IMG/VR virus record: IMGVR_UViG_3300044991_001618
Location: 1-64,000 of that record
Length of the DNA: 64,000 bases
Reading direction: 5' to 3' (one strand)
Source: a virus
The notes beneath the pieces were generated by a model that had not been told where the DNA came from, did no database searches, and saw only the letters and a list, made by a program, of their open reading frames with translations. A program made the translations under genes and the position numbers. Shown here piece after piece: positions 8,295 to 41,996 of this stretch; position 1 is the stretch's first letter, and each line of letters opens with the position of its first letter.

Positions 8295-8798
8295 ATGGAA
8301 AAAGAAACATTAAAAAAGATATTCAATTTTCTTGAAAAGAATGATAACAGAAATGTACCATTTACTTGGAAATTATTAAATAATGAACCATTAACAGAAA
8401 AAGATTTAAATATTAAAGGTGATTTGGATTTAACAGAGACAAATATTAAATCATTACCAAATGGATTGAAAATTACTGGGAATTTGATTTTAACTGAAAC
8501 AGATATGAGATTCTTACCAGAAGGACTATTAGTTGGTGGCCATTTGGATTTATATGCTTCAAAAATAGACTCATTACCAAAGGGCTTGAAGGTTGGTGGG
8601 GATTTGAATATTGAAGGCACTTACATAGAATTATTACCAAGTGGCTTACAAGTTGGTGGTGATTTATATTTGAATGATAGTGATTTGCATCACAGCATAG
8701 ATTATAATGATAGTAATGAATTAAGGGATATTGTAAAAAAAATGGTTGAACCTGGTTTTATTAAAGGTAAGGTAATTTTTGATGACGATGATGATTGA
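8295..8798 (+). CDS. LRR-like repeat protein, array 1 gene 1
   Basis: 167 residues. The family N-cap (MEKETLKKIFNFLE... to about 45, with TWKLLNNEPLTEKDL) is followed by four repeats of about 20-22 residues with core LPxGLxVgG-L-L---I. The C-terminus (ELRDIVKKMVEPGFIKG) is followed by a poly-Asp tail. The plan predicts a small solenoid. First gene after the promoter. Its C-terminal 40 residues are nearly the same as in the gene at 10193, which shows recent duplication. Function unknown. Confidence 0.85.
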   Translation: MEKETLKKIFNFLEKNDNRNVPFTWKLLNNEPLTEKDLNIKGDLDLTETNIKSLPNGLKITGNLILTETDMRFLPEGLLVGGHLDLYASKIDSLPKGLKVGGDLNIEGTYIELLPSGLQVGGDLYLNDSDLHHSIDYNDSNELRDIVKKMVEPGFIKGKVIFDDDDD

Positions 8799-8815
8799 TT
8801 TAAATTAAATATATT

Positions 8816-9286
8816 ATGGAAAAAGAAACAATAAAAAAGATATTTGATTTTCTTGAAGAAAATGGTGAGCATAATGCACCACTTATGTGGAAATTAAAAA
8901 ATAATGAACCAATAACAGAAGATGATTTGATTGTTAATGGTGATTTGAATTTGGGTCATTCAAAAATAACTTCACTACCAGAAGGCTTGGAAGTTGGTGG
9001 GTTTTTGGATTTAAGTTATTCACTTATAAACTCATTACCAGAAGGTTTAAAAGTTGGTGGGAGTTTATCTTTATTTGATTGTGCAATTATAACTTCACTA
9101 CCAGAAGGCTTGAAGGTTGGGCGTAATTTAGATTTAGGTTTTACAAAAATAATCTCATTACCAAGAGGGTTAAAAGTTGAGGGTTTTATAGATTTGAATG
9201 GTACAAAATTAACAGAATACACAGATGATGAATTAAGAAAAATGATTAAACCTGGATATATAAAAGGAAGAATAATTAAAGTTTAG
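8816..9286 (+). CDS. LRR-like repeat protein, array 1 gene 2
   Basis: 156 residues, four repeats between the family N-cap (MEKETIKKIFDFLEENGEHN) and the C-cap (DDELRKMIKPGYIKGRIIKV). Its last three repeats are close to those of the gene at 9644 (shared GGSLSLFDCA and KVEGFIDLNGTKL blocks), so the two are recent copies. 17 nt from the previous stop, 3 nt to the next start; probably translated from one message. Confidence 0.85.
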   Translation: MEKETIKKIFDFLEENGEHNAPLMWKLKNNEPITEDDLIVNGDLNLGHSKITSLPEGLEVGGFLDLSYSLINSLPEGLKVGGSLSLFDCAIITSLPEGLKVGRNLDLGFTKIISLPRGLKVEGFIDLNGTKLTEYTDDELRKMIKPGYIKGRIIKV

Positions 9287-9289
9287 TTA

Positions 9290-9640
9290 ATGGAAAAAGA
9301 AACACTAAAAAAAATACTTGATTTTCTTAAACAGAATGAGAATAGAAATATTCCAATTGCTTGGAAATTAATAAATAATGAACCATTAACAGAAAAGGAA
9401 TTAACTATTGATCGTGATTTGGATTTAAAAGGTTCAACTATAAAATCCTTACCAGAATATTTAAATATTAAAGATGATTTGGATTTATCTCACACAAAAA
9501 TAACCTCATTACCAAAAGGATTAAAAGTTGGTGAAAATTTATATATTAAAAACAGCCCATTAACTAAATATTCAGATTATGAAATAATAAAAATGATTGC
9601 GCCTGGATATATTCAAGGTAAAATAGATAGAAGTTGGTAA
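9290..9640 (+). CDS. LRR-like repeat protein, array 1 gene 3 (short)
   Basis: 116 residues, the shortest member: complete N-cap and C-cap but only two repeats (SLPEYLNIKD, SLPKGLKVGE). The C-terminal block KVGENLYIKNSPL is also found in the gene at 10717. Both ends are intact, so this is a short variant and not a broken gene. It shows that repeat number is free to vary. Confidence 0.82.
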   Translation: MEKETLKKILDFLKQNENRNIPIAWKLINNEPLTEKELTIDRDLDLKGSTIKSLPEYLNIKDDLDLSHTKITSLPKGLKVGENLYIKNSPLTKYSDYEIIKMIAPGYIQGKIDRSW

Positions 9641-9643
9641 ATT

Positions 9644-10189
9644 ATGGAAAAAGAAACATTAAAAAAGATATTTGATTTTATCAAAACAAAAGATAATAGA
9701 AATATTCCATTTATGTGGAAATTAAAAAATAATGAGCCAATAACAGAAGATGATTTGATTGTTAATGGTGATTTGGATTTGAGACCTAGTAGCATAGATT
9801 ACATGGATATAGAATCATTACCAGAAGGATTAAAAGTTTCTGGTCGTTTAGACCTTATGGGCTCAGATATGCAATTTTTACCAAAAGGCTTGGAAGTTGG
9901 TGGGTATTTGGATTTAAGTTATTCACTTATAAAATCATTACCAGAAGGATTAAAAGTTGGGGGGAGTTTATCTTTATTTGATTGTGCAAATATAACTTCA
10001 CTACCAGAAGGCTTGAAGGTTGGGGGCAATTTAGATTTAGGGGCTACAAATATAACATTATTACCAAGAGGGTTAAAAGTTGAGGGTTATATAGAGTTGA
10101 ATGGTACAAAATTAACAGGATACTCAGATGGTGAATTAAGAAATATGGTCAAACCTGGATATATAAAAGGAAGAATAATTAAATTTTAG
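9644..10189 (+). CDS. LRR-like repeat protein, array 1 gene 4
   Basis: 181 residues, five repeats. The N-cap differs slightly (FDFIKTKDNRNIPFMWK). From about residue 85 it follows the gene at 8816 nearly residue by residue with one extra repeat before that point, as expected from unequal recombination. C-cap GELRNMVKPGYIKGRIIKF. Spacing is 3 nt on both sides. Confidence 0.85.
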   Translation: MEKETLKKIFDFIKTKDNRNIPFMWKLKNNEPITEDDLIVNGDLDLRPSSIDYMDIESLPEGLKVSGRLDLMGSDMQFLPKGLEVGGYLDLSYSLIKSLPEGLKVGGSLSLFDCANITSLPEGLKVGGNLDLGATNITLLPRGLKVEGYIELNGTKLTGYSDGELRNMVKPGYIKGRIIKF

Positions 10190-10192: not shown

Positions 10193-10717
10193 ATGGAAAA
10201 AGAAACACTAAAAAAAATATTCAATTTTCTTGAAGAAAATGAAAGACATCAAACTCCATTTTTGTGGAAATGGGTAAATAATATACCATTAACAGAAAAA
10301 GATTTAAATATTGAAGGTAATTTGGATTTAACAGACACAGATATTAAATCATTACCAGATGGATTGAAAGTTGCTGGGAATTTGAATTTAACTGAAACAG
10401 ATATGGAATCATTACCAGAAAGATTGGAAGTTGCTGGTAATTTATATTTGGATCACAGTTTTATAAAATCATTACCAAAGGACTTGAAGGTTGGGGGGTA
10501 TTTGAGTATTGAAGCCACTTACATAAAATCATTACCAAGAGGCTTACAAGTTGGTGGTGATTTATATTTGAATGATAGTAAATTACTTAATAATATAGAT
10601 TATAATGATAGTAATGAATTAAGGGATATTGTAAAAAAAATGGTTGAACCTGGTTTTATTAAAGGTAATGTAATTTTTGATGAAGAAGGTGAGAATTGGC
10701 TTAAATCAGACATGTAA
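10193..10717 (+). CDS. LRR-like repeat protein, array 1 gene 5
   Basis: 174 residues, four repeats. It is the paralogue of the gene at 8295: same order of repeats, the same GGDLYLNDS block and the same extended C-cap (NDSNELRDIVKKMVEPGF), but the acidic tail is replaced by DEEGENWLKSDM. Its stop overlaps the next ATG (TAATG), giving translational coupling. Confidence 0.85.
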   Translation: MEKETLKKIFNFLEENERHQTPFLWKWVNNIPLTEKDLNIEGNLDLTDTDIKSLPDGLKVAGNLNLTETDMESLPERLEVAGNLYLDHSFIKSLPKDLKVGGYLSIEATYIKSLPRGLQVGGDLYLNDSKLLNNIDYNDSNELRDIVKKMVEPGFIKGNVIFDEEGENWLKSDM

Positions 10718-11268
10718 TGGAAAAAGAAACACTAAAAAACATACTTGATTTTCTTAAAGAAAAGGAAGGGAAATCATCTATTAGATGGAAATTATTACAT
10801 AATGAACCATTTACAGAAGAAGAGTTAAATGTTGATGGTAAGTTTATTTTTGATGGATTTTTGGATTTATCAGGCAAAAATATAACATCATTACCAAAAG
10901 GATTGGAAGTTAGGGGTAATTTATATTTAAGAAACTGTAAAAGTTTAACATCCTTACCAGAAGGATTGTCTGTTTGGGGGACTTTGGATTTAAAAGGTTC
11001 AACTATAAAATCCTTACCAGAAGGACTACTCCTTGGTGGTTTGAATTTAACAAATTGCAAAAGTTTAACATCCTTACCAGAAGGAATGAAAGTTGGTCGT
11101 GGTGGTTTGAATTTAACAAATTGCAAAAGTTTAACCTCATTACCAAAAGGATTAAAAGTTGGTGAAAATTTATATATTAAAAACAGCCCATTAGCAAAAT
11201 TTTCAGATGAGAGTTTAAAAGATATGATTGGATTAAATGGATATATAAAAGGAAAAATAGTTAGATAA
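10717..11268 (+). CDS. LRR-like repeat protein, array 1 gene 6
   Basis: 183 residues, five repeats. The repeats here are LRR-like in the strict sense (LNLTNCKSLTSLPEGMKVG), with the NCKSLTSLP segment present three times. N-cap MEKETLKNILDFLKEKEG, C-cap ESLKDMIGLNGYIKGKIVR with an insertion (GLNG) relative to the family. Coupled to both neighbours by TAATG overlaps. Confidence 0.85.
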   Translation: MEKETLKNILDFLKEKEGKSSIRWKLLHNEPFTEEELNVDGKFIFDGFLDLSGKNITSLPKGLEVRGNLYLRNCKSLTSLPEGLSVWGTLDLKGSTIKSLPEGLLLGGLNLTNCKSLTSLPEGMKVGRGGLNLTNCKSLTSLPKGLKVGENLYIKNSPLAKFSDESLKDMIGLNGYIKGKIVR

Positions 11269-11747
11269 TGAAAAAAGAAACACTAAAAAAGATATTTGAT
11301 TTTCTTGAAGAAAATCATAATAAAAGAAAACCACTTATGTGGAAATTAAAAAACAATATACCAATAACAGAAAAAGATGATTTGATTGTTAAAGGTAGTT
11401 TGGATTTATCTAGTTCAAACATAACCTCACTACCAAAAGGTTTGGAAGTTAAAGGTGGTTTAAGTTTATATGAATCAGAAATAATCTCCTTACCAGAAGG
11501 CTTGAAGGTTGGGGGTGATTTAGATTTAAGAAATTCATATATAGAAAGTTTACCAGAAGGATTGGAAGTTGGGGATGAATTGGATTTAGCATATACATAC
11601 ATAACATCACTACCAAAAGGTTTAAAAGTTGGGAGTATTTTGATTATAATTGAGAGTGAATTATTAAAATATTCAGATAAAGAAATAAGAAAAATGATTG
11701 AACCTGGGTATATTAAAGGGAAAATAATTAGAGAATATTATAGATAA
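11268..11747 (+). CDS. LRR-like repeat protein, array 1 gene 7
   Basis: 159 residues, four repeats, N-cap beginning MKKETL in place of MEKETL and C-cap KEIRKMIEPGYIKGKIIREYYR. Last gene of the first array; the peptidase gene follows after 24 nt with its own TATATTTA-like element (about 11753-11760). Confidence 0.85.
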   Translation: MKKETLKKIFDFLEENHNKRKPLMWKLKNNIPITEKDDLIVKGSLDLSSSNITSLPKGLEVKGGLSLYESEIISLPEGLKVGGDLDLRNSYIESLPEGLEVGDELDLAYTYITSLPKGLKVGSILIIIESELLKYSDKEIRKMIEPGYIKGKIIREYYR

Positions 11748-11771: not shown

Positions 11772-12569
11772 ATGGACAAAGAACTTTTAAAAGAAATATT
11801 ATCAATCCCCTCCTATTCGGGTGATGAAACAAAATTGGTTAATTTTATTACCAGTTATTTAGATGCTAACGATATCAAATACACATTAGATGAAATGAAA
11901 AACATTTATTGTGTGAAAGGTGAAGCAGAGTATTATCCTTGTGTCGTAGCACACACAGATACTGTCCATAACAACACTTTTATAGATGTTAGAACTGAAC
12001 TTAAACCAAACTCCAAAAGAGTCTTAAAAGAGGCGTATAAGGGTTATGATGTAAAAGGAAACCCAACAGGAATTGGTGGTGATGATAAGGCTGGAGTATT
12101 TGCTTGTCTTACTTTATTAAAGGAATTACCAGTAATAAAAGCGGCCTTTTTTGTTTCAGAAGAAATTGGTTGCGTGGGATCATTAAACGCTGATGCAAAT
12201 TTTTTCCTAGATGTGGGTTATGCAATTCAATTTGATGCCCCCTTTGATTGGATGGTAAGTGAAATATCTTCTGGAGTTAGATTATTTGACAGAGATAGCA
12301 AGTTCTTCACAAAGATAGATAAGGTATTAACAGAAAACACAAACCCCCAATATCAATCACACCCATATACCGATATATTTGCCTTAAAGAAATTATTTGA
12401 TTTTAGTTGTGTTAATATATCAATAGGATATTATGATTACCACACAAAGGATGAATATGTTGTTTTAGAAGATGTGGAGAAAGGAATTAAAATGGGCAGA
12501 GAAATGATAGAAAGTTTAGGATACAAGAAATATTACAAAAAATATAAACCATTAAGAATATTAGGATAA
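11772..12569 (+). CDS. M20-family di-zinc peptidase (PepT-like)
   Basis: 265 residues. Two-zinc aminopeptidase fold: metal ligands His61 and Asp63 (VVAHTDTV), the Asp pair in GIGGDDKAG (104-105), catalytic and ligand Glu130-131 (VSEEIGCVGS), Asp155 (QFDAP) and a late His in YYDYHTKDEYV. All positions needed for activity seem present. It is shorter than host PepT (about 400) because the lid/dimerisation domain is mostly missing, as in tetrahedral aminopeptidase-like or reduced M20 enzymes. It would trim peptides, for instance Clp products. Followed by a strong terminator. Confidence 0.85.
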   Translation: MDKELLKEILSIPSYSGDETKLVNFITSYLDANDIKYTLDEMKNIYCVKGEAEYYPCVVAHTDTVHNNTFIDVRTELKPNSKRVLKEAYKGYDVKGNPTGIGGDDKAGVFACLTLLKELPVIKAAFFVSEEIGCVGSLNADANFFLDVGYAIQFDAPFDWMVSEISSGVRLFDRDSKFFTKIDKVLTENTNPQYQSHPYTDIFALKKLFDFSCVNISIGYYDYHTKDEYVVLEDVEKGIKMGREMIESLGYKKYYKKYKPLRILG

Positions 12570-12574
12570 AAAGA

Positions 12575-12602
12575 AATGGGGGTTGTTAGCCCCCATTTTT
12601 GT
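12575..12602 (+). terminator. Rho-independent terminator
   Basis: AATGGGGG (12575-12582) pairs with CCCCCATT (12590-12597), followed by TTTTGTTT. Lies between the convergent peptidase and ClpC-like genes. Confidence 0.85.
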
Positions 12603-14603: not shown

Positions 14604-14617
14604 ATCTTATGTTTTTT

Positions 14618-14625
14618 TATAAATA
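14618..14625 (-). promoter_or_regulatory. TATTTATA promoter of clpC-like gene
   Basis: Minus-strand CATATTTATAAAAAAAC, 14 nt upstream of the ATG at 14603. Confidence 0.5.
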
Positions 14626-14657
14626 TGCTACAAATTTTGTACTAATCAAATAGTTTT

Positions 14658-14668
14658 GACAAATTGTC
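14658..14668. promoter_or_regulatory. Palindromic operator-like site 1
   Basis: GACAAATTGTC, a perfect 5+1+5 palindrome within a 16-bp sequence (14657-14672) that is repeated exactly at 14688-14703. It lies in the clpC/hsp20 divergent region, 33 bp upstream of the clpC-side TATTTATA. Confidence 0.6.
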
Positions 14669-14688
14669 TTATAATTTCATTGTATTAT

Positions 14689-14699
14689 GACAAATTGTC
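14689..14699. promoter_or_regulatory. Palindromic operator-like site 2
   Basis: Second exact GACAAATTGTC, 31 bp from the first (three helical turns, same DNA face). A half site TTGTC follows at 14726-14730. The arrangement suits cooperative binding of a dimeric regulator. Confidence 0.6.
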
Positions 14700-14789: not shown

Positions 14790-14801
14790 AAAATTAAAAT
14801 T

Positions 14802-26289: not shown

Positions 26290-26991
26290 ATGAATAGTTT
26301 AAGAATATTAGAATCAAATGAAATTGGTCATGGAATATTAATTGAGGCTGATGCTGGTTGGATTAATCCCAAAGACCAATTAAATGTTAATTTAATACAA
26401 GAAAACAAAAAGTTAGATTATAAGAACCCTTTTGAATTTTATGCTGTATTGCAAAAGCATGATGTACCAAATAGAAATGGTAGAACATATCCTGAAAAAA
26501 TATTAAAAAGGGAGGCTGAAAGATATAAGCAAATTATTGAAAAGGGTTTATCTACTTCTGAATTAAATCACCCCGAATCATCCTTAATTGACTTAGATAG
26601 AGTTGCCCACTTAATAACAGAAATTTGGTGGGATGGCAATATACTAATGGGTAAATTATTGCTATTAACCTCTCCTGGCTTTCACCAGAGCGGTGTTGTG
26701 TCAACCAAGGGTGATGTTGCCGCAAATCTAATGAGGCAAGGAGTGAGCCTAGGAATCAGTTCTAGGGGGGTTGGATCACTTAAAAAAGTTGGGGAGAAAA
26801 ATGAGGTTCAAGATGATTTTGAATTGATTTGTTTTGATTTGGTTTCATCCCCATCAACACCCGGGGCATACCTATTCTCAAATAAGGAAGATAGGCATAA
26901 GTATGATGAAAAACTAGAAGAAGAAAAGAAAATTGACCCCTCAACTAATATATTAAAATTAATGAATAAACTTGATAGTTATTTGAAATAA
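26290..26991 (+). CDS. Prohead maturation protease (gp21-like)
   Basis: 233 residues. Serine protease of the T4 gp21/herpes assemblin type: catalytic His in STSELNHPES, catalytic Ser in SLGISSRGVG, and the strands WWDGNILMGKLLLLTSPG between them. It processes scaffold, core and capsid proteins after C-terminally assembling in the prohead. N-terminal VLQKHDVPNRNGRTYPE is the family's substrate-loop region. The LRR-like gene array 2 begins one base after its stop, which is unlike T4, where the scaffold gene follows. Confidence 0.95.
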   Translation: MNSLRILESNEIGHGILIEADAGWINPKDQLNVNLIQENKKLDYKNPFEFYAVLQKHDVPNRNGRTYPEKILKREAERYKQIIEKGLSTSELNHPESSLIDLDRVAHLITEIWWDGNILMGKLLLLTSPGFHQSGVVSTKGDVAANLMRQGVSLGISSRGVGSLKKVGEKNEVQDDFELICFDLVSSPSTPGAYLFSNKEDRHKYDEKLEEEKKIDPSTNILKLMNKLDSYLK

Positions 26992-26992: not shown

Positions 26993-27754
26993 ATGGAAAT
27001 AGCAACATTAGGAAAGATATTTGAATTTATCAAAGAAAAGGGTGAACAAAATTTACCATTATTTTGGAAAATGAAAAATAATATGCCATTAACAGAAGAA
27101 GATTTGAATGTTAAAGGTGATTTGCATTTATCAAATAGAAACATAACCTCACTACCAAAAGGCTTGAAAGTTTATGGGAATATGAGTTTAGGGTATAGTA
27201 AAGTAAGATCATTACCAGAAGGATTAGAAGTTGGCGGTACGTTAAATGTTTCTGATAGTATGATAAGCAAATTACCAAAAGGATTAAAAGTTGGTGGTTC
27301 TCTGGTTATATCTTATACAAGTATAGGAATACTACCAAAAGGATTGGAAGTTGGTGGAGTTATCTATGCAATAAATAGTCATATATTTAATATAGACGAA
27401 ATACCAAAAGGTGTAATAACTGAAGGAATTGTAACTATCAACAAATTAATACTTAATTCAAATTTAACAATAAGTAGTGATTTGCATTTACAACATACAA
27501 AAATACCCTCATTACCAGAAGGATTGAAAGTTGGGAAGCATTTGTTTTTAGGATATTCAGAAATAACATCCTTACCAGAAGGATTAAACGTTGGGGAGCA
27601 TTTGTTTTTAGGATATTCAAAAATAACCTCATTACCAAAAGGGTTGGAAGTTTTTGGTGGTTTGTATATTAAAAATGCACCATTAACAAAATACACAGAT
27701 GAGCAATTAAGAGAAATGGTTAAACCTGGACATATAAATAGGATAATGAGATAA
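26993..27754 (+). CDS. LRR-like repeat protein, array 2 gene 1 (long)
   Basis: 253 residues, tied for the most repeats (about eight). N-cap starts MEIATLGKIFEFIKE. The fifth unit is irregular (EIPKGVITEGIVTINKLIL), as if two half repeats were fused. The last repeats KHLFLGYSEITSLPEGLNVGEHLFLGYS are near-identical copies. C-cap EQLREMVKPGHINRIMR. Starts 1 nt after the prohead protease stop, so it must be expressed with the head genes. Confidence 0.85.
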   Translation: MEIATLGKIFEFIKEKGEQNLPLFWKMKNNMPLTEEDLNVKGDLHLSNRNITSLPKGLKVYGNMSLGYSKVRSLPEGLEVGGTLNVSDSMISKLPKGLKVGGSLVISYTSIGILPKGLEVGGVIYAINSHIFNIDEIPKGVITEGIVTINKLILNSNLTISSDLHLQHTKIPSLPEGLKVGKHLFLGYSEITSLPEGLNVGEHLFLGYSKITSLPKGLEVFGGLYIKNAPLTKYTDEQLREMVKPGHINRIMR

Positions 27755-28155
27755 TGGAAATAGCAACATTAAAAAACATATTTAATTTCCTTGAAGTAAA
27801 TGAAAAAAAATTATCCATAAAATGGAAAATGATGAATAAAATCCCCTTTACTAAAGAACAATTATATGTCAAAGGTGATTTGGATTTACAAGGGGAAGAC
27901 ATAGAACAATTGCCAGCAGGGTTATATATTAAACGTAATTTATTGTTAAATGCCACACCAATAAAAAAATTACCAAAAGGTTTAAGAGTTGGTGGTGATT
28001 TGCAGTTACAAGATTGTGAAAATTTAAAATCCCTACCAAAAGATTTAAAAGTTCGGGGTAATATATGGCTTGGTGGCACACCATTAGGGAGAATGTCAGA
28101 TGAGAAAATATTAAATATGGTAAAACCAGATGGCTATATAGGTAACATATATTAA
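27754..28155 (+). CDS. LRR-like repeat protein, array 2 gene 2
   Basis: 133 residues, three repeats (QLPAGLYIKR, KLPKGLRVGG, SLPKDLKVRG). N-cap MEIATLKNIFNFLEVNE with the WKMMNKIPFTKEQL motif, C-cap LNMVKPDGYIGNIY. Overlaps the previous stop by 1 nt (TAATG). Confidence 0.85.
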   Translation: MEIATLKNIFNFLEVNEKKLSIKWKMMNKIPFTKEQLYVKGDLDLQGEDIEQLPAGLYIKRNLLLNATPIKKLPKGLRVGGDLQLQDCENLKSLPKDLKVRGNIWLGGTPLGRMSDEKILNMVKPDGYIGNIY

Positions 28156-28156: not shown

Positions 28157-28747
28157 ATGAAAGAAGAAACATTAGGAAAGATATTTGAATTTATCAAAGA
28201 AAAGAGCAAACAAAATTTACCATTATTTTGGAAATTGAAAAATGATATACCATTAACAGAAGAAGATTTGACTTTTAAAGGTGATTTAAATTTAGAAAAT
28301 TCAAAAATAACCTCCTTACCAGATGGTTTGAAAGTTGAGGGTGATTTGATGTTAACCTTTTCAGAAATAAGCTCATTACCAGATGATTTACAAGTTGGTG
28401 GTCATTTAAACATAATTGGTTGTGATGCCATAAACTCATTACCAAAAGGATTAAAAGTTGGTGACAGCATTCAATTATCACCAAAACGAATAGTTTCCAT
28501 TGGGGAAGGATTGTTTGTTGGTGGGGATTTAAATTTATTTAATAGCCAAATAAAATCATTACCCCAAGGAGTTAAAATTGGGGGAGAGTTAATATTATCC
28601 TTTACAAAAATAGAAACATTACCAAAAGGTTTGATAGTTAAAGGTGGTTTGGATATTGCTGGAACACCATTAGAAAAATATTCAGATGATGAATTAAGAA
28701 AAATGGTTAAACCTGGAGTTATAAAAGGTTCAATAATTAGAGATTAA
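28157..28747 (+). CDS. LRR-like repeat protein, array 2 gene 3
   Basis: 196 residues, six repeats, one degenerate (SIGEGLFVGG in place of SLPEGL). The N-cap FEFIKEKSKQNLPLFWKLKN is close to that of the gene at 26993, so these two are sisters. C-cap DELRKMVKPGVIKGSIIRD. Last of the array; followed by a TATATTTATA-like element (about 28779-28788) for the next gene. Confidence 0.85.
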   Translation: MKEETLGKIFEFIKEKSKQNLPLFWKLKNDIPLTEEDLTFKGDLNLENSKITSLPDGLKVEGDLMLTFSEISSLPDDLQVGGHLNIIGCDAINSLPKGLKVGDSIQLSPKRIVSIGEGLFVGGDLNLFNSQIKSLPQGVKIGGELILSFTKIETLPKGLIVKGGLDIAGTPLEKYSDDELRKMVKPGVIKGSIIRD

Positions 28748-29017: not shown

Positions 29018-29037
29018 AACAAATAACTTTTATCGTA

Positions 29038-29071
29038 AACCCCTAGCATAAATAATGTTAGGGGTTTTTTT
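29038..29071 (+). terminator. Rho-independent terminator
   Basis: AACCCCTA (29038-29045) pairs with TAGGGGTT (29059-29066), followed by TTTTT. Precedes the scaffold-capsid promoter. Confidence 0.85.
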
Positions 29072-34523: not shown

Positions 34524-35090
34524 TTAAATAGCAAATTCTGTTTCATCCCAATCAGGATCCTCATTTAATATAATACCTTTAATATATCCAGGTTTAACCA
34601 TTTTTTTTAATTGATTTTCAGTGTATTTGGTTAATTTTGTGTAAGTTATGTTTATTCCATCATCAACTTTCAATCCTTTTGGTAATGATTGTAATTTGTA
34701 ACAATGATTTAAATATAATGTACCATTAACTTTTAATCCTTCTGGTAATGATTCAAGTTTTTCACAGCCATATAAATCCAAATCACCCCCAACTTTCAAT
34801 AGTTCTGGTAATGATTTTATATTTGAATGTTCTAAAGATAACTCGCCCCCAACTTCCAAGTCTTCTGGTAATGAAGTTATTTTTGAATAATCTAAATTCA
34901 AATTGCCACTAACTTTCAATCCTTCTGGTAATGAAGTTATTTTAAAATTTGATAAATCCAAATCATCATTAACAATTAAATCTTCTTTTGTTAATGGTGA
35001 ACCATTTGTTATTTTCCATAAAAATGGAATTTTTGTACCATCTAACTTTTCAATAAAATTAAATATATTCTTTAGTGTTTCTTTTTCCAT
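34524..35090 (-). CDS. LRR-like repeat protein, array 3 gene 4
   Basis: 188 residues, five repeats with classical LRR character (DLYGCEKLESLPEGLKVNG, TLYLNHCYKLQSLPKGLKV). N-cap FNFIEKLDGTKIPFLWKITNGSPLTKEDL is the most divergent of the family. C-cap NQLKKMVKPGYIKGIIL and an acidic tail EDPDWDETEFAI. Last gene of array 3 in transcription order; its start overlaps the upstream stop by 1 nt. Confidence 0.85.
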   Translation of the reverse strand: MEKETLKNIFNFIEKLDGTKIPFLWKITNGSPLTKEDLIVNDDLDLSNFKITSLPEGLKVSGNLNLDYSKITSLPEDLEVGGELSLEHSNIKSLPELLKVGGDLDLYGCEKLESLPEGLKVNGTLYLNHCYKLQSLPKGLKVDDGINITYTKLTKYTENQLKKMVKPGYIKGIILNEDPDWDETEFAI

Positions 35091-35494
35091 TATCTAATTA
35101 TATTATTTATATATCCAGGATTAACCATTTGCCTTAATTCCTCAGTTGAATATTTTGTTAATGGTGTATTTTTAATAAACAAACGACCCCAAACTTTCAA
35201 CCCTTTTGGTAATGATGTTATATTTGAATGTCCCAAATCCAAATCCTCCCCAACTTTTAATCCTTCTGGTAATGATTGTATATTTTTACAACCATATAAA
35301 CTTAAAATATCCTCAACGTTCAATCCATCTGGTAATGATTCAATATCTGTTTCTGTTAAATCCAAATCCCCTTCAACAAATAACTCTTCATCTGTTAATG
35401 GTTCATTATTCATTAATTTCCACATAAATGGTTTATCCTTATTTTCTTCTTCTTCAAGGAATGTAAATATCTTTTTTAGTGTTTCTTTTTCCAT
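35090..35494 (-). CDS. LRR-like repeat protein, array 3 gene 3
   Basis: 134 residues, three repeats. N-cap IFTFLEEEENKDKPFMWKLMNNEPLTDEEL; repeats SLPDGLNVED, SLPEGLKVGE, SLPKGLKVWG; C-cap EELRQMVNPGYINNIIR. TAATG overlaps on both sides. Confidence 0.85.
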   Translation of the reverse strand: MEKETLKKIFTFLEEEENKDKPFMWKLMNNEPLTDEELFVEGDLDLTETDIESLPDGLNVEDILSLYGCKNIQSLPEGLKVGEDLDLGHSNITSLPKGLKVWGRLFIKNTPLTKYSTEELRQMVNPGYINNIIR

Positions 35495-36141
35495 TATCTT
35501 TCTATATTTCCAAGTATAAATCCTGGTTTAACCATTTTTCTTAATTCATTATCTGAAAATTTTGCTAACCCAGAGTCGTGAATGGCCAAATTACCATAAA
35601 CCTCCAACCCTTTTGGTAATGAAGTTAAATTTTTGCAACGCATTAAATCTAACAATCTATTAACTTTTAATCCTTTTGGTAAAAATCCTATCTCTGAATC
35701 CTCCAAAGATAATATACCAACTTCCATTCCTTCTGGTAATGATTCCAAATATGGGGTGGTATTTAAATTTAATTCACCTTCAATTTTTAATCCTTTTGGT
35801 AATGATTGTATTTGTGTATATGATAAATCCAAATCTAATTTAACTTTTAATCCTTTTGGTAATTTTCTTATTTCTGTATAATTTAAAACTAAATGCCCTC
35901 CAACTTCCAATCCTTCTGGTAATGATTTAATATCTGAATTTTGTAAAAACAAATCACCTTCAACTTTCAATCCTTCTGGCAATTCTTCTATCTCTAAATC
36001 TGATAAATTCAAATCACCTTTAACATGTAAATCATCTTCTGTGAATGGAAAACCATTTGACCATTTCCACCTAAGTGGCGTATTCCTATTATCCTTCTTT
36101 TCAAGGAAATTAAATATCTTCTTTAATGTTTCTTTTTCCAT
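35494..36141 (-). CDS. LRR-like repeat protein, array 3 gene 2
   Basis: 215 residues, seven repeats, two lacking the final Gly-Gly (KVKLDLDLSYTQ, EVGILSLEDSE). N-cap FNFLEKKDNRNTPLRWKWSNGFPFTEDDL, C-cap NELRKMVKPGFILGNIER. Coupled to neighbours by TAATG overlaps. Confidence 0.85.
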   Translation of the reverse strand: MEKETLKKIFNFLEKKDNRNTPLRWKWSNGFPFTEDDLHVKGDLNLSDLEIEELPEGLKVEGDLFLQNSDIKSLPEGLEVGGHLVLNYTEIRKLPKGLKVKLDLDLSYTQIQSLPKGLKIEGELNLNTTPYLESLPEGMEVGILSLEDSEIGFLPKGLKVNRLLDLMRCKNLTSLPKGLEVYGNLAIHDSGLAKFSDNELRKMVKPGFILGNIER

Positions 36142-36605
36142 TATCTATATATATATCTATTTAAAAAACTAGGCTCAACCATTTTTATTAATTCATCATC
36201 TGAAAATTTTGCTAATGGTGTTCCACCAATAAACAAATTTTGCCCAACTTTCAATCCTTTTGGTAATGATGCTATTTCAGAGTAGGATAAATCCAAATCA
36301 ACCCCAACTTCTAATCCTTCTGGCATAGAAGTTATTCTTGTGTTTGATAAATCTAAATGTCTCCCAACTTTCAATCCTTTTGGTAATGATTTAATATCAG
36401 AAAATTGTAAATACAAGTCACCTTCAACATATAAATTATCTGGCAATGTTTCTATCCCTGAATCTGAAAAATCCAAATCACCTTTAATATGCAAATCATC
36501 TTCTGTTAATGGTTCACCACTTGACCATTTCCATAATAATGGTGCTCTTATTTCATCATTCTTTTCAAGAAATTTAAATATCTTCTTTAATGTTTCTTTT
36601 TCCAT
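36141..36605 (-). CDS. LRR-like repeat protein, array 3 gene 1
   Basis: 154 residues, four repeats. First LRR-like gene of array 3 in transcription order; it begins 3 nt after the stop of the LWSQCLSWARSRY protein. N-cap FKFLEKNDEIRAPLLWKWSSGEPLTEDDL, C-cap DELIKMVEPSFLNRYIYR. Confidence 0.85.
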   Translation of the reverse strand: MEKETLKKIFKFLEKNDEIRAPLLWKWSSGEPLTEDDLHIKGDLDFSDSGIETLPDNLYVEGDLYLQFSDIKSLPKGLKVGRHLDLSNTRITSMPEGLEVGVDLDLSYSEIASLPKGLKVGQNLFIGGTPLAKFSDDELIKMVEPSFLNRYIYR

Positions 36606-36608: not shown

Positions 36609-37031
36609 CTATCCTTTCTTCCACTTTCCACCCAATTTCTTATACCTTTTTGCCGCAGCACCATTACAATATGCGCTTGGGCATACTTTATACCTAGACC
36701 TTGCCCAACTCAAACATTGACTCCATAACTTGGGATTTGTTGGTTTATTCTTTTTTTCCTTTGCTTCTGTTATGTTCTGGCTATCCCTATTTTCAAATTC
36801 ATTCATCATAAAATCAAAAACTTGATCCAAGTTTTCTTTTGCAACTGTCACATGGTCATCAGCCCAATCATGGCCATTGGTCAACAATTCATTAATTTCA
36901 TCAGGTTGAAATTCAAGCAATAATTCACATTGTCTTTTAATTTGTTTTAAGTTTCCAAAAAACATATAATTTTCTGTTGCTTGCTCATTTATTGCATTCT
37001 TAACAATTTTTTTAATTACTGGATGTATCAT
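36609..37031 (-). CDS. Virion-associated protein with YKVCPSAYCNG motif
   Basis: 140 residues. The C-terminal block LWSQCLSWARSRYKVCP followed by SAYCNGAAAKRYKKLGGKWKK is a small domain common at the C-termini of proteins in large environmental phages. The N-terminal half contains a helix starting IKKIVKNAINEQ. Leads array 3. A TATTTATA element lies 15 nt upstream (37046-37053). Confidence 0.65.
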   Translation of the reverse strand: MIHPVIKKIVKNAINEQATENYMFFGNLKQIKRQCELLLEFQPDEINELLTNGHDWADDHVTVAKENLDQVFDFMMNEFENRDSQNITEAKEKKNKPTNPKLWSQCLSWARSRYKVCPSAYCNGAAAKRYKKLGGKWKKG

Positions 37032-37170: not shown

Positions 37171-37710
37171 TTATATCCTAATTATTCTACCTATACGCCC
37201 AGGTTTAACCATTTCTCTTAATTCAGCATCTGAAAATTTGTCTAAACTATCTCCAACACTCACGGCTAAATATCCATTAACTTCCAATCCTTTTGGTAAT
37301 CTTTTTATTGGTGTATCCATTATTGATAACCAAAGGTCAATTACTAGCCCTTCTGGTAATGAAGTTATTTTTGTATTATGCAAATACAAAGAAGCACCAA
37401 TTTTAATATCATTTGGTATGTTTTTTATAATTGAATGCGATAACTCCAGAGAACCATCAACTTTTAACCCTTTTGGTAATTCTTCTATTTTTGAAAATCT
37501 AGTAATCATTCTACCTTTAACTTCCAAATTATCTGGTAATGATTTTAAAGTTGAATCTGTTAAATCTAAATCACCATTAACAATTAAATCTTCTTTTGTT
37601 AGGGGATCACCAAGTTTTAATTTCCAAATAAAGGTATCTCTATCTTTATGTTTTTTGTTTTCTTTCTTTTCAAGGAAATCAAATATATTTTTTATTGCTT
37701 CTTTTTCCAT
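37171..37710 (-). CDS. LRR-like repeat protein, array 4 gene 9
   Basis: 179 residues, five repeats, two with Ile-Pro in place of Leu-Pro (NIPNDIKIGASLYL). The N-cap MEKEAIKNIFDFLEKKENKK, with extra KHKDRD, is the same as in the next gene. C-cap AELREMVKPGRIGRIIRI. Last gene of array 4. Confidence 0.85.
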   Translation of the reverse strand: MEKEAIKNIFDFLEKKENKKHKDRDTFIWKLKLGDPLTKEDLIVNGDLDLTDSTLKSLPDNLEVKGRMITRFSKIEELPKGLKVDGSLELSHSIIKNIPNDIKIGASLYLHNTKITSLPEGLVIDLWLSIMDTPIKRLPKGLEVNGYLAVSVGDSLDKFSDAELREMVKPGRIGRIIRI

Positions 37711-38318
37711 TATCTAATTATTTGCTCCTTTATAAATCCAGGTTTAACCATATTTCTTAATTCTTCATCAGAAAATTTTACTAATGGTGATCCACTTATA
37801 ATTAAAATCCCCCTAACTTTCAACCCTTTTGGTAATGATGTTAAACTTGTGCAATTTTCTAAATACAAATCACGGCCAACTTCCAATCCTTCTGGCAAGG
37901 ATGTTAAACTTGTGCAATTTTCTAAATCTAAATTATGCGCAACTTTCAATCCTTTTGGTAAAGATATTAAATTTGTGGAATTTTCTAAATATAAAGACGC
38001 TCCAAGTTCTAATCCTCTTGGCAGTGAAATTAAATCTTCACAACCTTCTAAATCTAAACGACCCCCAACTTTTAAGTTATCAGGTAATGATTTAATAGAT
38101 GAATAATTTAAAATCAAATAACCACCAACTTTCAACCCATCTGGTAATGAGGTTATTTTTGAATATGATAAATCCAAATTACCTTTTACATTTAACTCTT
38201 CTTCTGTTATTGGTTCATCAAATTTTAATTTCCAAATAATGCTATCCCTATCTTTATGTTTTTTATTTTCTTTCTTTTCAAGGAAATCAAATATATTTTT
38301 TATTGCTTCTTTTTCCAT
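37710..38318 (-). CDS. LRR-like repeat protein, array 4 gene 8
   Basis: 202 residues, six repeats. Its repeats contain the strict LRR segment LENCTSLTSLP (twice) and LENSTNLISLP. N-cap nearly identical to the gene at 37171. C-cap EELRNMVKPGFIKEQIIR. TAATG overlaps at both ends. Confidence 0.85.
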   Translation of the reverse strand: MEKEAIKNIFDFLEKKENKKHKDRDSIIWKLKFDEPITEEELNVKGNLDLSYSKITSLPDGLKVGGYLILNYSSIKSLPDNLKVGGRLDLEGCEDLISLPRGLELGASLYLENSTNLISLPKGLKVAHNLDLENCTSLTSLPEGLEVGRDLYLENCTSLTSLPKGLKVRGILIISGSPLVKFSDEELRNMVKPGFIKEQIIR

Positions 38319-38797
38319 TATCTAATTATTTTACCATTTATAAACCCATCTGGTTCAACCATTTCTCTTATTTTTTCATCTGAAAGTTTTGCTAATGGAG
38401 TTTTTACAATATGTAAATTACGTTCAACTTTTAAACCTTTTGATAATGTTTCTATATCTGAATATGTTAAATCTAAATCGCGACCAACATATAAATCACC
38501 TGGCAAGGATTTGAAACTTGTCCATTCAAAATTCAAATCACCCTCAACAAATAATTTTTCTGGGAATGTTTTTAAACTTGAGAACCGAAAATCAGCATTT
38601 CCTATAACTTTTAACCCTTTTGGTAAATGTTGTATATTTATGCCAGATATATCCAAATCGCCTCTAACAATTAAATCTTCTTTTGTTAATGGTTCATTAA
38701 ACATAAATTTCCACCTTAAAGTTCCTTTGTTTTTATGTTTTTTATTGTCTTCTTTTTCAAGAAAATCAAGTATATTTTTTAGTGTTTCTTTTTCCAT
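38318..38797 (-). CDS. LRR-like repeat protein, array 4 gene 7
   Basis: 159 residues, four repeats of weaker consensus (TFPEKLFVEG, SLPGDLYVGR, TLSKGLKVER). N-cap LDFLEKEDNKKHKNKGTLRWKFM; C-cap EKIREMVEPDGFINGKIIR. The divergence suggests an older copy. Confidence 0.82.
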   Translation of the reverse strand: MEKETLKNILDFLEKEDNKKHKNKGTLRWKFMFNEPLTKEDLIVRGDLDISGINIQHLPKGLKVIGNADFRFSSLKTFPEKLFVEGDLNFEWTSFKSLPGDLYVGRDLDLTYSDIETLSKGLKVERNLHIVKTPLAKLSDEKIREMVEPDGFINGKIIR

Positions 38798-39267
38798 TAT
38801 CTAATTATATTTCCTTTAAATGAACCATTATTTAAATTTTTATTTCTTCTTATTTCAGCATCTGTATATTTTTTGGCAAGGAAGGATTCTCCTATATATA
38901 AATTACCACCAACATATAAATTTTTTGGGATTTCTTCTATATCTGAATGTCTAAAATACAAATCACCCCCAACATATAAATTGTCTGGTAATGATTCTAT
39001 ATTTGTATGGGATAAGTTAAAACTATCCTTAACATATAACCCTTCTGGTAATGAGTTTATTTCTGATCCCAACAACCACAATTTACCTTCAACTCTCATC
39101 CCATTAGGTAATGAGGTTATAGTTGTAAATTCCAAATTTAAATTGCCTTTTATATTTAAATCCTCTTTTGTTAGTTCATTATTTACCCATTTCCATAAAA
39201 ATGGTGTTTTGATATCATCATTTTCTTCAAGGAAATCAAATATTCTTTTTAATGTTTCTTTTTCCAT
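38797..39267 (-). CDS. LRR-like repeat protein, array 4 gene 6
   Basis: 156 residues, four repeats. The last two repeats (SLPDNLYVGG, EIPKNLYVGG) and the unusual C-cap (KKYTDAEIRRNKNLNNGSF) are the same as in the gene at 39267 except for a few positions; a recent duplication. Confidence 0.85.
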   Translation of the reverse strand: MEKETLKRIFDFLEENDDIKTPFLWKWVNNELTKEDLNIKGNLNLEFTTITSLPNGMRVEGKLWLLGSEINSLPEGLYVKDSFNLSHTNIESLPDNLYVGGDLYFRHSDIEEIPKNLYVGGNLYIGESFLAKKYTDAEIRRNKNLNNGSFKGNIIR

Positions 39268-39740
39268 TATCTAATTATATTTCCTTTAAATGAACCATTA
39301 TTTAAATTTTTATTTCTTCTTATTTCACCATCTGTATATTTTTTGGCGAGGGGGGTCTCTTCTATATCTAATTCACCACCAACGTATAAATTTTTTGGTA
39401 TTTCTCCTATATTTGAATATTTAAACCATAAATCACCCCCAACATATAAATTGTCTGGTAATGATTCAATATATGTATGTGATACATCCAAACTACCCTT
39501 AACATATAGCCCTTCTGGTAATGTTTTTATTGCTGATGCAAATAATGACAAATCACCTTGAACTCTCAATCCCTCTGGTAATGAGGTTATTGCTGAATGA
39601 TTTAAAATTAAATCCCCATCAAAATTTAATTCATCTTCTGTAAATGGGTGATTAATTTTTACTTTATAAGCAAAAGGTTTTGGTCTATTTTCCTCTTTCT
39701 CAAGGAATTCAATTATTTTTTTTAATGTTTCTATTTCCAT
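39267..39740 (-). CDS. LRR-like repeat protein, array 4 gene 5
   Basis: 157 residues, four repeats; sister of the gene at 38797. N-cap MEIETLKKIIEFLEKEENRP differs at residues 2-4. The C-cap ends ...NLNNGSFKGNIIR in both. Confidence 0.85.
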   Translation of the reverse strand: MEIETLKKIIEFLEKEENRPKPFAYKVKINHPFTEDELNFDGDLILNHSAITSLPEGLRVQGDLSLFASAIKTLPEGLYVKGSLDVSHTYIESLPDNLYVGGDLWFKYSNIGEIPKNLYVGGELDIEETPLAKKYTDGEIRRNKNLNNGSFKGNIIR

Positions 39741-40279
39741 TACTCTCTTAATATTCCTTTTATAAATCCAGGTTTAACCATTTCTTTTAATTCAGCATTA
39801 GAAAATTTGGATAAACTATCATTACTATTTAAAACTAAATAACCCTTAATTATCAATCCTTTTGGTAATGAAGTTATTTTTGTTTTCTGCAAATACAAAG
39901 AACCACCAATTTCAATATCATCAGGTATATTTTTTATTTTTGAGTTCCTTAAATTCAAATTACCACCAACTTTCAATCCTTTTGGTAGTGATTCTATATT
40001 TGAACTTGCTAAAGATAAATAATCCCCAACTTCTAACCCTTCTGGTAATGAGACTATTGCCGAACAACCCATTAAATTAACCCAACCCTTAACTCTTAAT
40101 CCTTCTGGTAATGATGTTACTTTTGTATATGATAATTCCAAATTACCATTAATATTTAATTCATCATATGTTAATTCATTAAATATAACCTTCCATTTAA
40201 AACTACCTTTATCTCGGGGCATTTTATTTTCTTCCTTTTCAAGAAAATCAAGTATTTTTTTAAATGTTTTATTTTCCAT
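39740..40279 (-). CDS. LRR-like repeat protein, array 4 gene 4
   Basis: 179 residues, five repeats; the fourth, NIPDDIEIGGSLYLQKTKI, is close to one in the gene at 37171 (NIPNDIKIGASLYLHNTKI). N-cap LDFLEKEENKMPRDKGSFKW. C-cap AELKEMVKPGFIKGILRE. Confidence 0.85.
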   Translation of the reverse strand: MENKTFKKILDFLEKEENKMPRDKGSFKWKVIFNELTYDELNINGNLELSYTKVTSLPEGLRVKGWVNLMGCSAIVSLPEGLEVGDYLSLASSNIESLPKGLKVGGNLNLRNSKIKNIPDDIEIGGSLYLQKTKITSLPKGLIIKGYLVLNSNDSLSKFSNAELKEMVKPGFIKGILRE

Positions 40280-40282
40280 TAT

Positions 40283-40696
40283 CTACATATTTCCTATTAT
40301 TTCTCCTATATAACCATTTGGCTTTATCATATTCAATAATTCATTGTCTGAAATTTCTGTAAATTTTGTTCTGTAAATATATAAACTACCCCCAACTTTC
40401 AAGTCTTTTGGTAATGAGGTTAAACCCCAACACCCAGCTAACCATAAATTACCCTCAACTTCCAATCCTTCTGGTAATGTTTTTATATCTGAGTCTGTTA
40501 AATCTAAAACACGCCCAACTTTCAATCCTTCTGGTAATGAAGTTATTTTAAAATTTGATAAATCCAAATTACCTTCAATATTTAAATCTTTTTCTGTTAA
40601 GGGTTCATTATTTTTTACTTTATAAGCAAAAGGTTTTTTTCTATTTTCTTCCTTCTCAAGGAATTCAAGTATTCTTTTTAATGTTTCTTCTTTCAC
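40283..40696 (-). CDS. LRR-like repeat protein, array 4 gene 3
   Basis: 137 residues, three repeats. N-cap MKEETLKRILEFLEKEENRK, C-cap NELLNMIKPNGYIGEIIGNM, similar to the C-cap of the gene at 27754. Overlaps the upstream gene by 4 nt. Confidence 0.83.
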   Translation of the reverse strand: MKEETLKRILEFLEKEENRKKPFAYKVKNNEPLTEKDLNIEGNLDLSNFKITSLPEGLKVGRVLDLTDSDIKTLPEGLEVEGNLWLAGCWGLTSLPKDLKVGGSLYIYRTKFTEISDNELLNMIKPNGYIGEIIGNM

Positions 40697-41289
40697 AATC
40701 TTGATATTTTTTCTTTTATAAATCCAGGATAAACCATTTCTCTTAATTGTCCATCTGTGTATTTTCGTAATGGGGTATTTTCTATATACAATACCCCCCT
40801 AACTTCTAACCCTTTTGGTAATGATGTTATTTTTGTATCTTTTAAATTCAAATATTTACCAACTTTTAATCCTTCTGGTAGTGAAATTAAATCTTTGCAA
40901 GAATATAAATCCAAAAAACCCCTAATTTTTAAGTCATTAGGTAATGAACTAATGGATGTATAATTTAAATGCAAATTACCACCAACTTTCAATCCTTTTG
41001 GTAATGAGGTTATTTTTGAATATGCTAAAAACAAATGCTTCCCAACTTTTAATCCTTCTGGTAATGATTGTATTCTTGAAAATGTTAAAATTAAGTCCCC
41101 CTCAACTTTTAACCCTTCTGGTAATGATTCTATACTTGAGTACATTAAATTCAAATCATCTTTTATATTTAATTCATCTTTTGTTAATGGTTTATTAAAT
41201 AATAACTTCCACCTTAAATTATTTTTAGGTATTACCCCTTCCTTTTCTTCAAGAAAATCAAGTATTTTTTCAATTGTTTCTTTTTCCAT
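40693..41289 (-). CDS. LRR-like repeat protein, array 4 gene 2
   Basis: 198 residues, six repeats of good consensus. N-cap LDFLEEKEGVIPKNNLRWKLLFNKPLTKDEL; C-cap GQLREMVYPGFIKEKISRL. Overlaps neighbours at both ends. Confidence 0.85.
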   Translation of the reverse strand: MEKETIEKILDFLEEKEGVIPKNNLRWKLLFNKPLTKDELNIKDDLNLMYSSIESLPEGLKVEGDLILTFSRIQSLPEGLKVGKHLFLAYSKITSLPKGLKVGGNLHLNYTSISSLPNDLKIRGFLDLYSCKDLISLPEGLKVGKYLNLKDTKITSLPKGLEVRGVLYIENTPLRKYTDGQLREMVYPGFIKEKISRL

Positions 41290-41996
41290 TATCTAACTAT
41301 TTTTCCTTTTATAAATCCAGGTTGAATCATCTTTCTTAATCTATAATTACTAATTTCATCTAAATGGGAAAGATTCAACATTATAGATCCATAAACTTTC
41401 AATCCTTTTGGTAATGAGGTTAAATCTGTTAGTCTTAAATCCAAATCACCACCAACTTTTAAACCTTCTGGCAATGATTGTATATTTTTACAACCAAATA
41501 ACACCAAATCTTTCCTAACTTCAAGTCCTTCTGGTAATGAAGTTATTTTTGTATTATTTAAAACTAAATGCCCTCCAACTTTCAATCCTTCTGGTAATGA
41601 AGTTATTTTTGTATTATTTAAATACAAATCCCTACCAACTTTCAATCCTTTTGGTAGCAAGGTTATATCTGTATTAGATGAAAACAAATCACCACCAACT
41701 TCCAATCCTTCAGGTAATGATGTTATTTTTGTTGAACCTAAATTCAAATTACCCCCAACTTTCAAACCTTCTGGCAATGAGGTTATTTTTGATCTTCTTA
41801 AATCGAAATTACCACCAACTTTCAAACCTTCTGGTAATGAGGTTATTGTTGTTTCATAAAACCACAAATTACCTATAACATCTAAATCTTCTTTGGTTAT
41901 TGGCTCATTATTTAATATTTTCCATTTAAATGGTGCTCTATGTTCTCCTTTCTCTTCAAGGAATTCAAATATTCTTTTTAATGTTTCTTTTTCCAT
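41289..41996 (-). CDS. LRR-like repeat protein, array 4 gene 1 (long)
   Basis: 235 residues, eight repeats of near-perfect consensus; adjacent units KITSLPEGLKVGG are almost identical, so the array expanded recently within this gene. N-cap FEFLEEKGEHRAPFKWKILNNEPITKEDL, C-cap YRLRKMIQPGFIKGKIVR. First LRR-like gene after the structural gene at 42004 (7 nt gap). Confidence 0.87.
   Translation of the reverse strand: MEKETLKRIFEFLEEKGEHRAPFKWKILNNEPITKEDLDVIGNLWFYETTITSLPEGLKVGGNFDLRRSKITSLPEGLKVGGNLNLGSTKITSLPEGLEVGGDLFSSNTDITLLPKGLKVGRDLYLNNTKITSLPEGLKVGGHLVLNNTKITSLPEGLEVRKDLVLFGCKNIQSLPEGLKVGGDLDLRLTDLTSLPKGLKVYGSIMLNLSHLDEISNYRLRKMIQPGFIKGKIVR

What the first reader, a model, noticed from the sequence alone, without database searches (positions are those of the whole stretch)
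8295..41996. 23-member LRR-like gene family in four head-to-tail arrays
Twenty-three genes (7+3+4+9) share an N-cap (MEKETLKKIFDFLE...WKL-NEPLTEEDL), 2 to 8 repeats of about 20-22 residues (core SLPEGLKVGGDLDLS-TKI), and a C-cap (ELRKMVKPGYIKGKIIR). They take up about 12 kb, some 19% of the window. The arrays occur on both strands but always follow the direction of virion operons. No effector domain is attached, so the solenoid itself is the product: decoys against host defence, virion surface or binding proteins, or inhibitors are possible.
Basis: partly seen in the sequence, partly recalled or inferred. Interest (0 to 1): 0.88.

Follow-up and report, generated by a model that had tools for sequence, protein, structure and literature searches.

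The report
Phage arrays of diversified LRR proteins
A large T4-like virus of bacteria spends about one sixth of its known sequence on more than 30 different copies of one small leucine-rich-repeat binding protein, kept in clusters at fixed places in the genome, which looks like a custom repertoire of protein binders (most likely to block host proteins) that nobody has yet tested.

Summary
All 23 genes are present and intact at the stated places (12,102 b, 18.9% of the window). The window is part of a 112,963-b contig of a contractile-tailed, T4-like phage with ten more members at 95.8-101.3 kb: 33 genes in five arrays, 15.6% of the contig. A colinear contig, identical at every point checked, adds three more beyond the window's left end.

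They are true leucine-rich-repeat (LRR) proteins: confident models (pLDDT 93) match solved LRRs. Units are 20 residues (Ser/Thr type) or 21 (Cys type), with variability concentrated on the predicted concave strand face. Three arrays ride directly behind other genes, one behind the prohead protease.

In related phages the arrays sit in the same slots beside conserved core genes, but copy number and members differ. Paralogues are about 52% identical. Orthologues have dN/dS 0.58, against 0.10-0.13 for typical core genes; scaffold residues are conserved (0.17); no copy is a pseudogene. This fits a maintained, fast-evolving repertoire of binders, not dosage amplification or junk.

Targets are unknown. 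Best guess: cytosolic binders that block host proteins (0.45), ahead of virion-associated binders. No family with a defined function was found. New variant of a known kind.

The parts
8295..8798 (+). Array A, LRR gene 1 (167 aa, 4 LP units)
   Evidence: first of array, with a TATTTAT box 20-45 b upstream
8816..9286 (+). Array A, LRR gene 2 (156 aa); AlphaFold2 model pLDDT 92.7, pTM 0.83
9290..9640 (+). Array A, LRR gene 3 (116 aa, 2 LP units, smallest)
9644..10189 (+). Array A, LRR gene 4 (181 aa)
10193..10717 (+). Array A, LRR gene 5 (174 aa)
10717..11268 (+). Array A, LRR gene 6 (183 aa); start overlaps the previous stop
11268..11747 (+). Array A, LRR gene 7 (159 aa)
26290..26991 (+). Prohead protease (T4 gp21-like), directly upstream of array B (gap 1 b)
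   Evidence: PHROG 207 head maturation protease, E 9e-43
26993..27754 (+). Array B, LRR gene 1 (253 aa, 7 LP units)
27754..28155 (+). Array B, LRR gene 2 (133 aa)
28157..28747 (+). Array B, LRR gene 3 (196 aa)
29037..29067 (+). Terminator-like hairpin after array B, before the scaffold gene
   Evidence: 13 pairs + T run; number of such sites in the region is no more than chance
34524..35090 (-). Array C1, LRR gene 4 (188 aa)
35090..35494 (-). Array C1, LRR gene 3 (134 aa)
35494..36141 (-). Array C1, LRR gene 2 (215 aa)
36141..36605 (-). Array C1, LRR gene 1 (154 aa), 3 b behind gene 36609-37031
37171..37710 (-). Array C2, LRR gene 9 (179 aa)
37710..38318 (-). Array C2, LRR gene 8 (202 aa)
38318..38797 (-). 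Array C2, LRR gene 7 (159 aa)
38797..39267 (-). Array C2, LRR gene 6 (156 aa)
39267..39740 (-). Array C2, LRR gene 5 (157 aa)
39740..40279 (-). Array C2, LRR gene 4 (179 aa)
40283..40696 (-). Array C2, LRR gene 3 (137 aa, GTG start)
40693..41289 (-). Array C2, LRR gene 2 (198 aa)
41289..41996 (-). Array C2, LRR gene 1 (235 aa, 8 LP units); AlphaFold2 model pLDDT 93.2, pTM 0.87
42004..43506 (-). 500-aa gene directly upstream of array C2 (gap 7 b); virion role inferred only
   Evidence: no PHROG, Pfam or phage match; 84% identical orthologues in both relatives

Best explanation
These are free-standing LRR binding proteins. SHOWN: (1) each is an N-terminal helical cap, 2-8 LRR units of 20 residues (Ser/Thr at the 'asparagine' position) or 21 residues (Cys there), and a conserved helical C-cap, by sequence and confident predicted structure; (2) the leucine/proline scaffold is conserved while positions 10, 12, 14, 15 and 17, which flank the predicted concave beta strand, are the most variable; (3) members duplicate and turn over inside arrays at fixed genome slots, three of them placed directly behind an upstream gene, without disrupting core genes; (4) their dN/dS is about four to five times that of core genes, yet no copy is a pseudogene. 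INFERRED: each paralogue uses its concave face to bind a different protein in the infected cell, and the shared N-cap gives a common fold-cap or docking element. Most likely the targets are host proteins (defence or other proteins hostile to the phage) blocked by stoichiometric binding, so the arrays are a swappable inhibitor repertoire that tracks host variation.
For: Fold: (8z5u LRR protein TM 0.75 by target length; SspH1/IpaH LRR domains next); sequence profile against PDB E 1e-31. Variability on the concave strand: (entropy 3.2-3.7 bits at positions 10, 12, 14, 15, 17 against 0.3-1.6 at scaffold positions and 1.1-2.8 elsewhere). Repertoire rather than dosage: median pairwise identity 52%, maximum 79%. 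Same slots, different copy numbers: (A 7/2/3; B 3/3/5; C 13/6/10; E 10/8/not covered). Lineage-specific expansion: 17 of 33 members have their nearest relative in the same array or slot of the same genome. dN/dS 0.58 (0.48-0.69) over 33 independent orthologue pairs against core-gene medians 0.10-0.13, with no core gene above 0.5. No stop inside any match. No membrane segment: highest 19-aa hydropathy 1.25. Precedent: T4 tandemly amplifies a gene for a protein inhibitor (tifA) to beat a host toxin-antitoxin system (PMC9391042).
Against: No target is known. No PADLOC hit, though that library holds defence, not anti-defence, proteins. No site class has dN/dS significantly above 1 (concave 0.73, 0.50-1.07), and the concave/convex contrast among orthologues is not significant (1.39, 0.91-2.24), so positive selection is not proven. 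Array B sits in the head operon, presumably late, which is odd for inhibitors that should act early unless they are packaged or act on late events. No LRR gene was found beside any recognised anti-defence gene.
Confidence: 0.45

Rival explanations
1. Virion-associated binders: LRR proteins are packaged in the head and injected, or decorate the virion, and bind host surface or cytoplasmic targets at entry.
For: Array B lies between prohead protease and scaffold in three genomes. In a related contig an LRR is fused into a 521-aa protein that starts with a leader ending in LLNE, which resembles a prohead-protease (I/L)xE site. In other phages LRR arrays start with MIKLIDLLEN/MIKLLDILRE, and unrelated neighbouring proteins start similarly.
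Against: The family's own N-cap has (I/L)xE at the comparable place in only 100 of 232 sequences. Arrays A and E are not in recognisable virion operons. No receptor-binding, trimerisation or signal sequence was recognised.
Confidence: 0.25
2. Assembly adaptors or chaperones: each LRR binds a different phage protein and helps virion assembly, as the best structural match (an LRR protein in the polar flagellar motor) is a part of a large assembly.
For: 8z5u is the best structural and sequence match; three arrays sit directly behind, and are probably read through from, upstream genes.
Against: Copy number and membership change between phages whose core proteins are mostly 60-90% identical; partners of conserved proteins should not turn over like that. 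dN/dS is far above that of core genes.
Confidence: 0.12
3. Decoys: the proteins mimic host or phage triggers and absorb defence sensors or competing phage factors.
For: High copy number, diversity and lack of enzymatic domains.
Against: Nothing shows mimicry of any host or phage protein; the nearest cellular relatives are LRR recognition modules, not targets.
Confidence: 0.08
4. Near-neutral copy-number ratchet: tandem duplication by recombination between the conserved caps keeps making copies with little function.
For: Conserved gene junctions, within-array expansion and relaxed dN/dS.
Against: No pseudogene among the 33; scaffold codons under clear purifying selection (0.17); 15.6% of a packaged genome is a heavy load.
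Confidence: 0.1

Closest known systems
LRR protein in the polar flagellar motor structure (PDB 8z5u/8z5w/8z60)
   Same: Same short LRR unit and solenoid (profile E 1e-31; TM 0.75 by target length, 28% identity).
   Different: Match covers the repeats, not the N-cap; part of a flagellar complex; no array shown. The source paper was not found.
LRR domains of IpaH/SspH/SlrP type III effectors (LRR-NEL ubiquitin ligases)
   Same: Short bacterial LRR fold used for substrate recognition (TM about 0.5-0.6 by query length; NCBIfam SlrP E 2e-8, far below cut-off).
   Different: No NEL ligase domain and no secretion context here; the scores fail the family cut-offs.
Uncharacterised 'Leucine-rich repeat' proteins of uncultured Caudovirales phages (BFVD A0A6J7X9U5, A0A6J7X691) and PHROG 21719
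   Same: About 50% identity, TM 0.65 for the two BFVD proteins; PHROG 21719 matches weakly, E 5e-6.
   Different: Deposited as single proteins of unknown function; I did not see their genomic setting.
Edwardsiella phage Edno5 / GF-2 LRR protein (AYP69195.1)
   Same: Same 20-residue 'ALPDGLSVGGSLDLRGTGIT' unit.
   Different: One gene, phage of a different kind with a repressor region, different N- and C-terminal parts.
Adaptive tandem amplification of the T4 inhibitor gene tifA (PMC9391042)
   Same: Tandem gene expansion in a T4-type phage, there serving counter-defence.
   Different: tifA copies there are recent amplifications of one gene; here copies are diverged (median 52%) and numerous. 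Analogy of process only.

Membership tests
Leucine-rich repeat (LRR) superfamily | Tandem 20-30-residue units with LxxLxLxx(N/C/T/S)xL core | tested here: met
   20- and 21-residue units with LxLxx(S/T)xI or LxLxxCxxL
Leucine-rich repeat (LRR) superfamily | Solenoid with a strand per unit on the concave face | tested here: met
   AlphaFold2 pLDDT 92.7 and 93.2 with regular strands; Foldseek best hits are LRR structures. Prediction, not an experimental structure
Leucine-rich repeat (LRR) superfamily | Pfam LRR model above gathering score (a detection criterion, not a defining structural one) | tested here: not met
   LRR_1/LRR_4 match below cut-off, as is common for divergent short LRRs; read as low sensitivity of the model because fold and motif agree
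IpaH/SspH LRR-NEL E3 ligases | C-terminal NEL catalytic domain | tested here: not met
   No NEL in the window proteins scanned; NEL found only in the Chlamydiae MAG relative L160
T4-type internal head proteins (capsid-targeted, injected) | N-terminal targeting peptide ending in an (I/L)xE prohead-protease site | tested here: not met
   (I/L)xE at N-cap residues 13-15 in 100 of 232
T4-type internal head proteins (capsid-targeted, injected) | Protein present in the virion | not testable with these tools
   Needs virion mass spectrometry
Known anti-phage defence protein families (PADLOC) | Match to a PADLOC model | tested here: not met
   Four members, no hit
Receptor-binding or tail-fibre proteins | Tail-fibre or adhesin domain, or PHROG tail category | tested here: not met
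   Six members scanned with PHROGs and Pfam: weak LRR-type, unknown-function and chance-level matches, no tail category

The most novel reading that the evidence does not exclude
A lineage of large T4-like phages carries an evolving library of at least 36 LRR binders at fixed, expandable slots, with hypervariable concave faces as in lamprey VLRs or plant LRR receptors, used as a combinatorial counter-defence repertoire; other phages have assembled similar arrays with different N-caps.
Probability: 0.3. Interest if true: 0.88.

Novelty: new variant of a known kind. Interest (0 to 1): 0.68.

Why it matters
Multigene families of diversified binding proteins are familiar from eukaryotic immunity and parasites, but I found no description of one filling about a sixth of a phage contig. 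If these are inhibitors, each member points to a host protein worth blocking, so the arrays would be a ready-made screen for unknown bacterial defences. Arrays with other N-caps in further phage contigs suggest a general way for phages to hold and renew a binder repertoire, and the 20/21-residue units are simple enough for reuse as binding scaffolds.

Tried and rejected
(1) Dosage amplification of one gene: rejected, paralogues are only 52% identical on average. (2) Degenerate copies: rejected, no stops in any match. (3) Cleaved capsid-targeting N-cap: site present in only 43%. (4) Host acquisition: an N-cap pattern scan of 84,980 bacterial and archaeal genomes found no relative; a repeat-based scan found four LRR loci, none with this N-cap. 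The scans need near-exact peptide patterns, so distant relatives can be missed. (5) Shared arrays in the closest cultured T4-like phage (Flavobacterium phage immuto, terminase 26%) and a 484-kb uncultured phage: none found, but no positive control was in that search. (6) Phage-specific promoter class: a TATTTAT/TATTTGT box lies 20-45 b upstream of 18 of 55 core genes with an intergenic gap, and of the first genes of arrays A and E only; the reverse-complement control is also high (14 core genes against 20), so this is suggestive at best. (7) Papers: no report of LRR arrays in phages found in the held open-access library; a relevant review of viral LRR unit length (Matsushima 2021, cited in PMC10945359) is not held. 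PDB 8z5u was identified only through Foldseek.
Full report
Check of the observation. An alignment shows invariant M1, I9, F12, K26 and the cap motifs. Profile E-values for these members are 1e-45 or better, no reversed ORF scores, and there is no twilight zone between family and other ORFs.

Larger than seen. The window lies in a 112,963-b virus record. A profile search found a further array at 95,758-101,289 (+, E), with ten ORFs: 33 genes, 17,643 b, 15.6% of the contig. Contig G001 is colinear with G000, identical at all eight points checked, with 100% identity in all 23 shared members; it extends 28.6 kb beyond the window's left end and there holds three more members. So this phage carries at least 36.

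What phage. Terminase, portal, prohead protease and major head protein match T4-type families; a head-tail adaptor-like protein and a tail sheath are encoded further on. The closest terminases in annotated phages are only 26-27% identical (an uncultured 484-kb phage, Flavobacterium phage immuto). The outer-membrane protein gene and this relative suggest a Bacteroidota host (inference).

Fold. Two AlphaFold2 models (156 aa, 35-sequence alignment, pLDDT 92.7; 235 aa, 16 sequences, pLDDT 93.2) show helices at 3-15 and 23-28, a regular solenoid with two short strands per unit, and a helical C-cap. Foldseek's best PDB hit is 8z5u chain 0, an LRR protein in a polar flagellar motor (E 2e-6, TM 0.75 by target length), then SspH1 and Leptospira LRR proteins. 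Sequence profiles give the same first hit. In the viral library the best hits are phage proteins named only 'Leucine-rich repeat', at about 50% identity.

Anatomy of the unit. In 147 distinct members, 407 units are 20 residues, LPxGLxVGGxLxLxx(S/T)xIxS, and 133 are 21 residues, LPxGLxVGGxLxLxxCxxLxS, the cysteine type of LRR. Entropy is highest at positions 10, 12, 14, 15 and 17 (3.2-3.7 bits), which flank the second strand (the concave side in LRRs, from general knowledge and the model's strand positions), and lower at other positions outside the scaffold (1.1-2.8) and at scaffold positions (0.3-1.6). That is the pattern of LRRs that bind many different ligands.

Genome slots. Comparison with contigs G006 (270 kb, 41 members) and G007 (107 kb, 23 members) shows arrays in the same slots with flanking genes mostly 60-90% identical: A beside the peptidase gene (7/2/3), B between protease and scaffold (3/3/5), C between the genes at 34,104-34,490 and 42,004-43,506 (4+9 / 6 / 10), E beside superoxide dismutase (10/8/not covered). 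Inside the slots, membership differs: 17 of the 33 have their nearest relative in the same array or slot of the same genome (C1 and C2 counted as one slot). Between G000 and close relative G002, some members are 94-98% identical, others 53-74%, others absent.

Selection. With the same counting method, 33 independent orthologous family pairs give dN/dS 0.58 (95% interval 0.48-0.69), and core genes of the same phages have per-gene medians of 0.10-0.13, none above 0.5. By site: scaffold 0.17, convex 0.46, concave 0.73 (0.50-1.07), N-cap 0.63, C-cap 0.69. This shows coding, a maintained fold and weakly constrained or diversifying surfaces. It does not prove positive selection, and concave against convex is not significant among orthologues. 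The pairs are limited to at least 70% identity and chosen as reciprocal best matches, which biases towards recent, possibly exchanged, copies.

Transcription. B, C1 and C2 begin 1-7 b behind another gene and genes inside arrays often overlap at stop and start codons, so they are very probably read from the upstream gene (inference). A and E begin at gaps with an AT-rich box also seen before several virion and non-virion genes; the statistics are weak.

Wider occurrence. The viral collection holds many contigs with this N-cap and others whose LRR arrays have the same kind of C-cap but other N-caps: MIKLIDLLENKILVPRRSPEERSKN (L196, L218, L216), MNLxEATKRI (L223) and a divergent MKPxxYNFFKFL (L215). 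Of 333 distinct LRR proteins in those loci, 291 have the N-cap. Fusions exist: PcfJ-LRR (L206), N-cap-LRR with a 290-aa C-terminal part (L195), an LRR in a 521-aa protein (L136), and the N-cap on a non-LRR 112-aa protein (L110:5033-5371). The N-cap is therefore a separable module. Among bacterial and archaeal genomes only four loci with such repeats were found, including a Chlamydiae LRR-NEL protein.

Mechanism. The shared plan (constant caps and scaffold, variable binding face, many paralogues, turnover, no enzyme or membrane part) is best explained as a repertoire of binding proteins. I rate the statement 'LRR binders with different partners' at about 0.8 and 'the partners are mainly host proteins that the phage must block' at 0.45. 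The main rival is virion association, for which array B and the 521-aa fusion speak but the missing cleavage motif speaks against.

Novelty. LRR phage proteins are known as single uncharacterised entries; phage gene amplification is known from T4 tifA (PMC9391042). A large, diversified, slot-bound LRR repertoire in phages was not found in the literature or family libraries available here, so I call it a new variant of a known kind.

Noticed in passing
L097:2901-6245 (contig 86,901-90,245, -): Phage-encoded 1114-aa outer-membrane beta-barrel protein with a carboxypeptidase-regulatory-like domain, 87% identical orthologue in G006: a host-type surface protein conserved in the phage lineage.
   Followed up: partly
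window 7713-8134 (-): tmRNA gene found by ARAGORN and Rfam, next to array A.
   Followed up: partly
window 11772-15646: Proteostasis cluster: peptidase, Clp ATPase, Hsp20, cyclophilin.
   Followed up: partly
L097:11024-11725 and L098:16356-17123: Fe/Mn superoxide dismutase gene beside array E; an ADP-ribosyltransferase (ART-PolyVal) with an N-terminal leader.
   Followed up: partly
L110:5033-5371 (-): LRR-family N-cap joined to an unrelated 70-aa body: the N-cap is a transferable module.
   Followed up: partly
L196, L218, L216: LRR arrays with a different N-cap; unrelated neighbouring proteins share an MIxLxxLLxE-type start, perhaps a head-targeting leader.
   Followed up: partly
L218:4127-5163 and 10283-10717: Another tandem repeat-protein family (HREDGPAIEY...GDKWYYINGK units) in a phage contig that also has LRR arrays.
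   Followed up: no
L161:162-967: Two tandem LRR genes with a distinct N-cap in a short contig binned as Lokiarchaeota; may be viral or misbinned.
   Followed up: no
L206:5059-6102 and L160:5554-8505: PcfJ-LRR fusion in a viral contig; LRR-NEL protein in a Chlamydiae MAG.
   Followed up: partly
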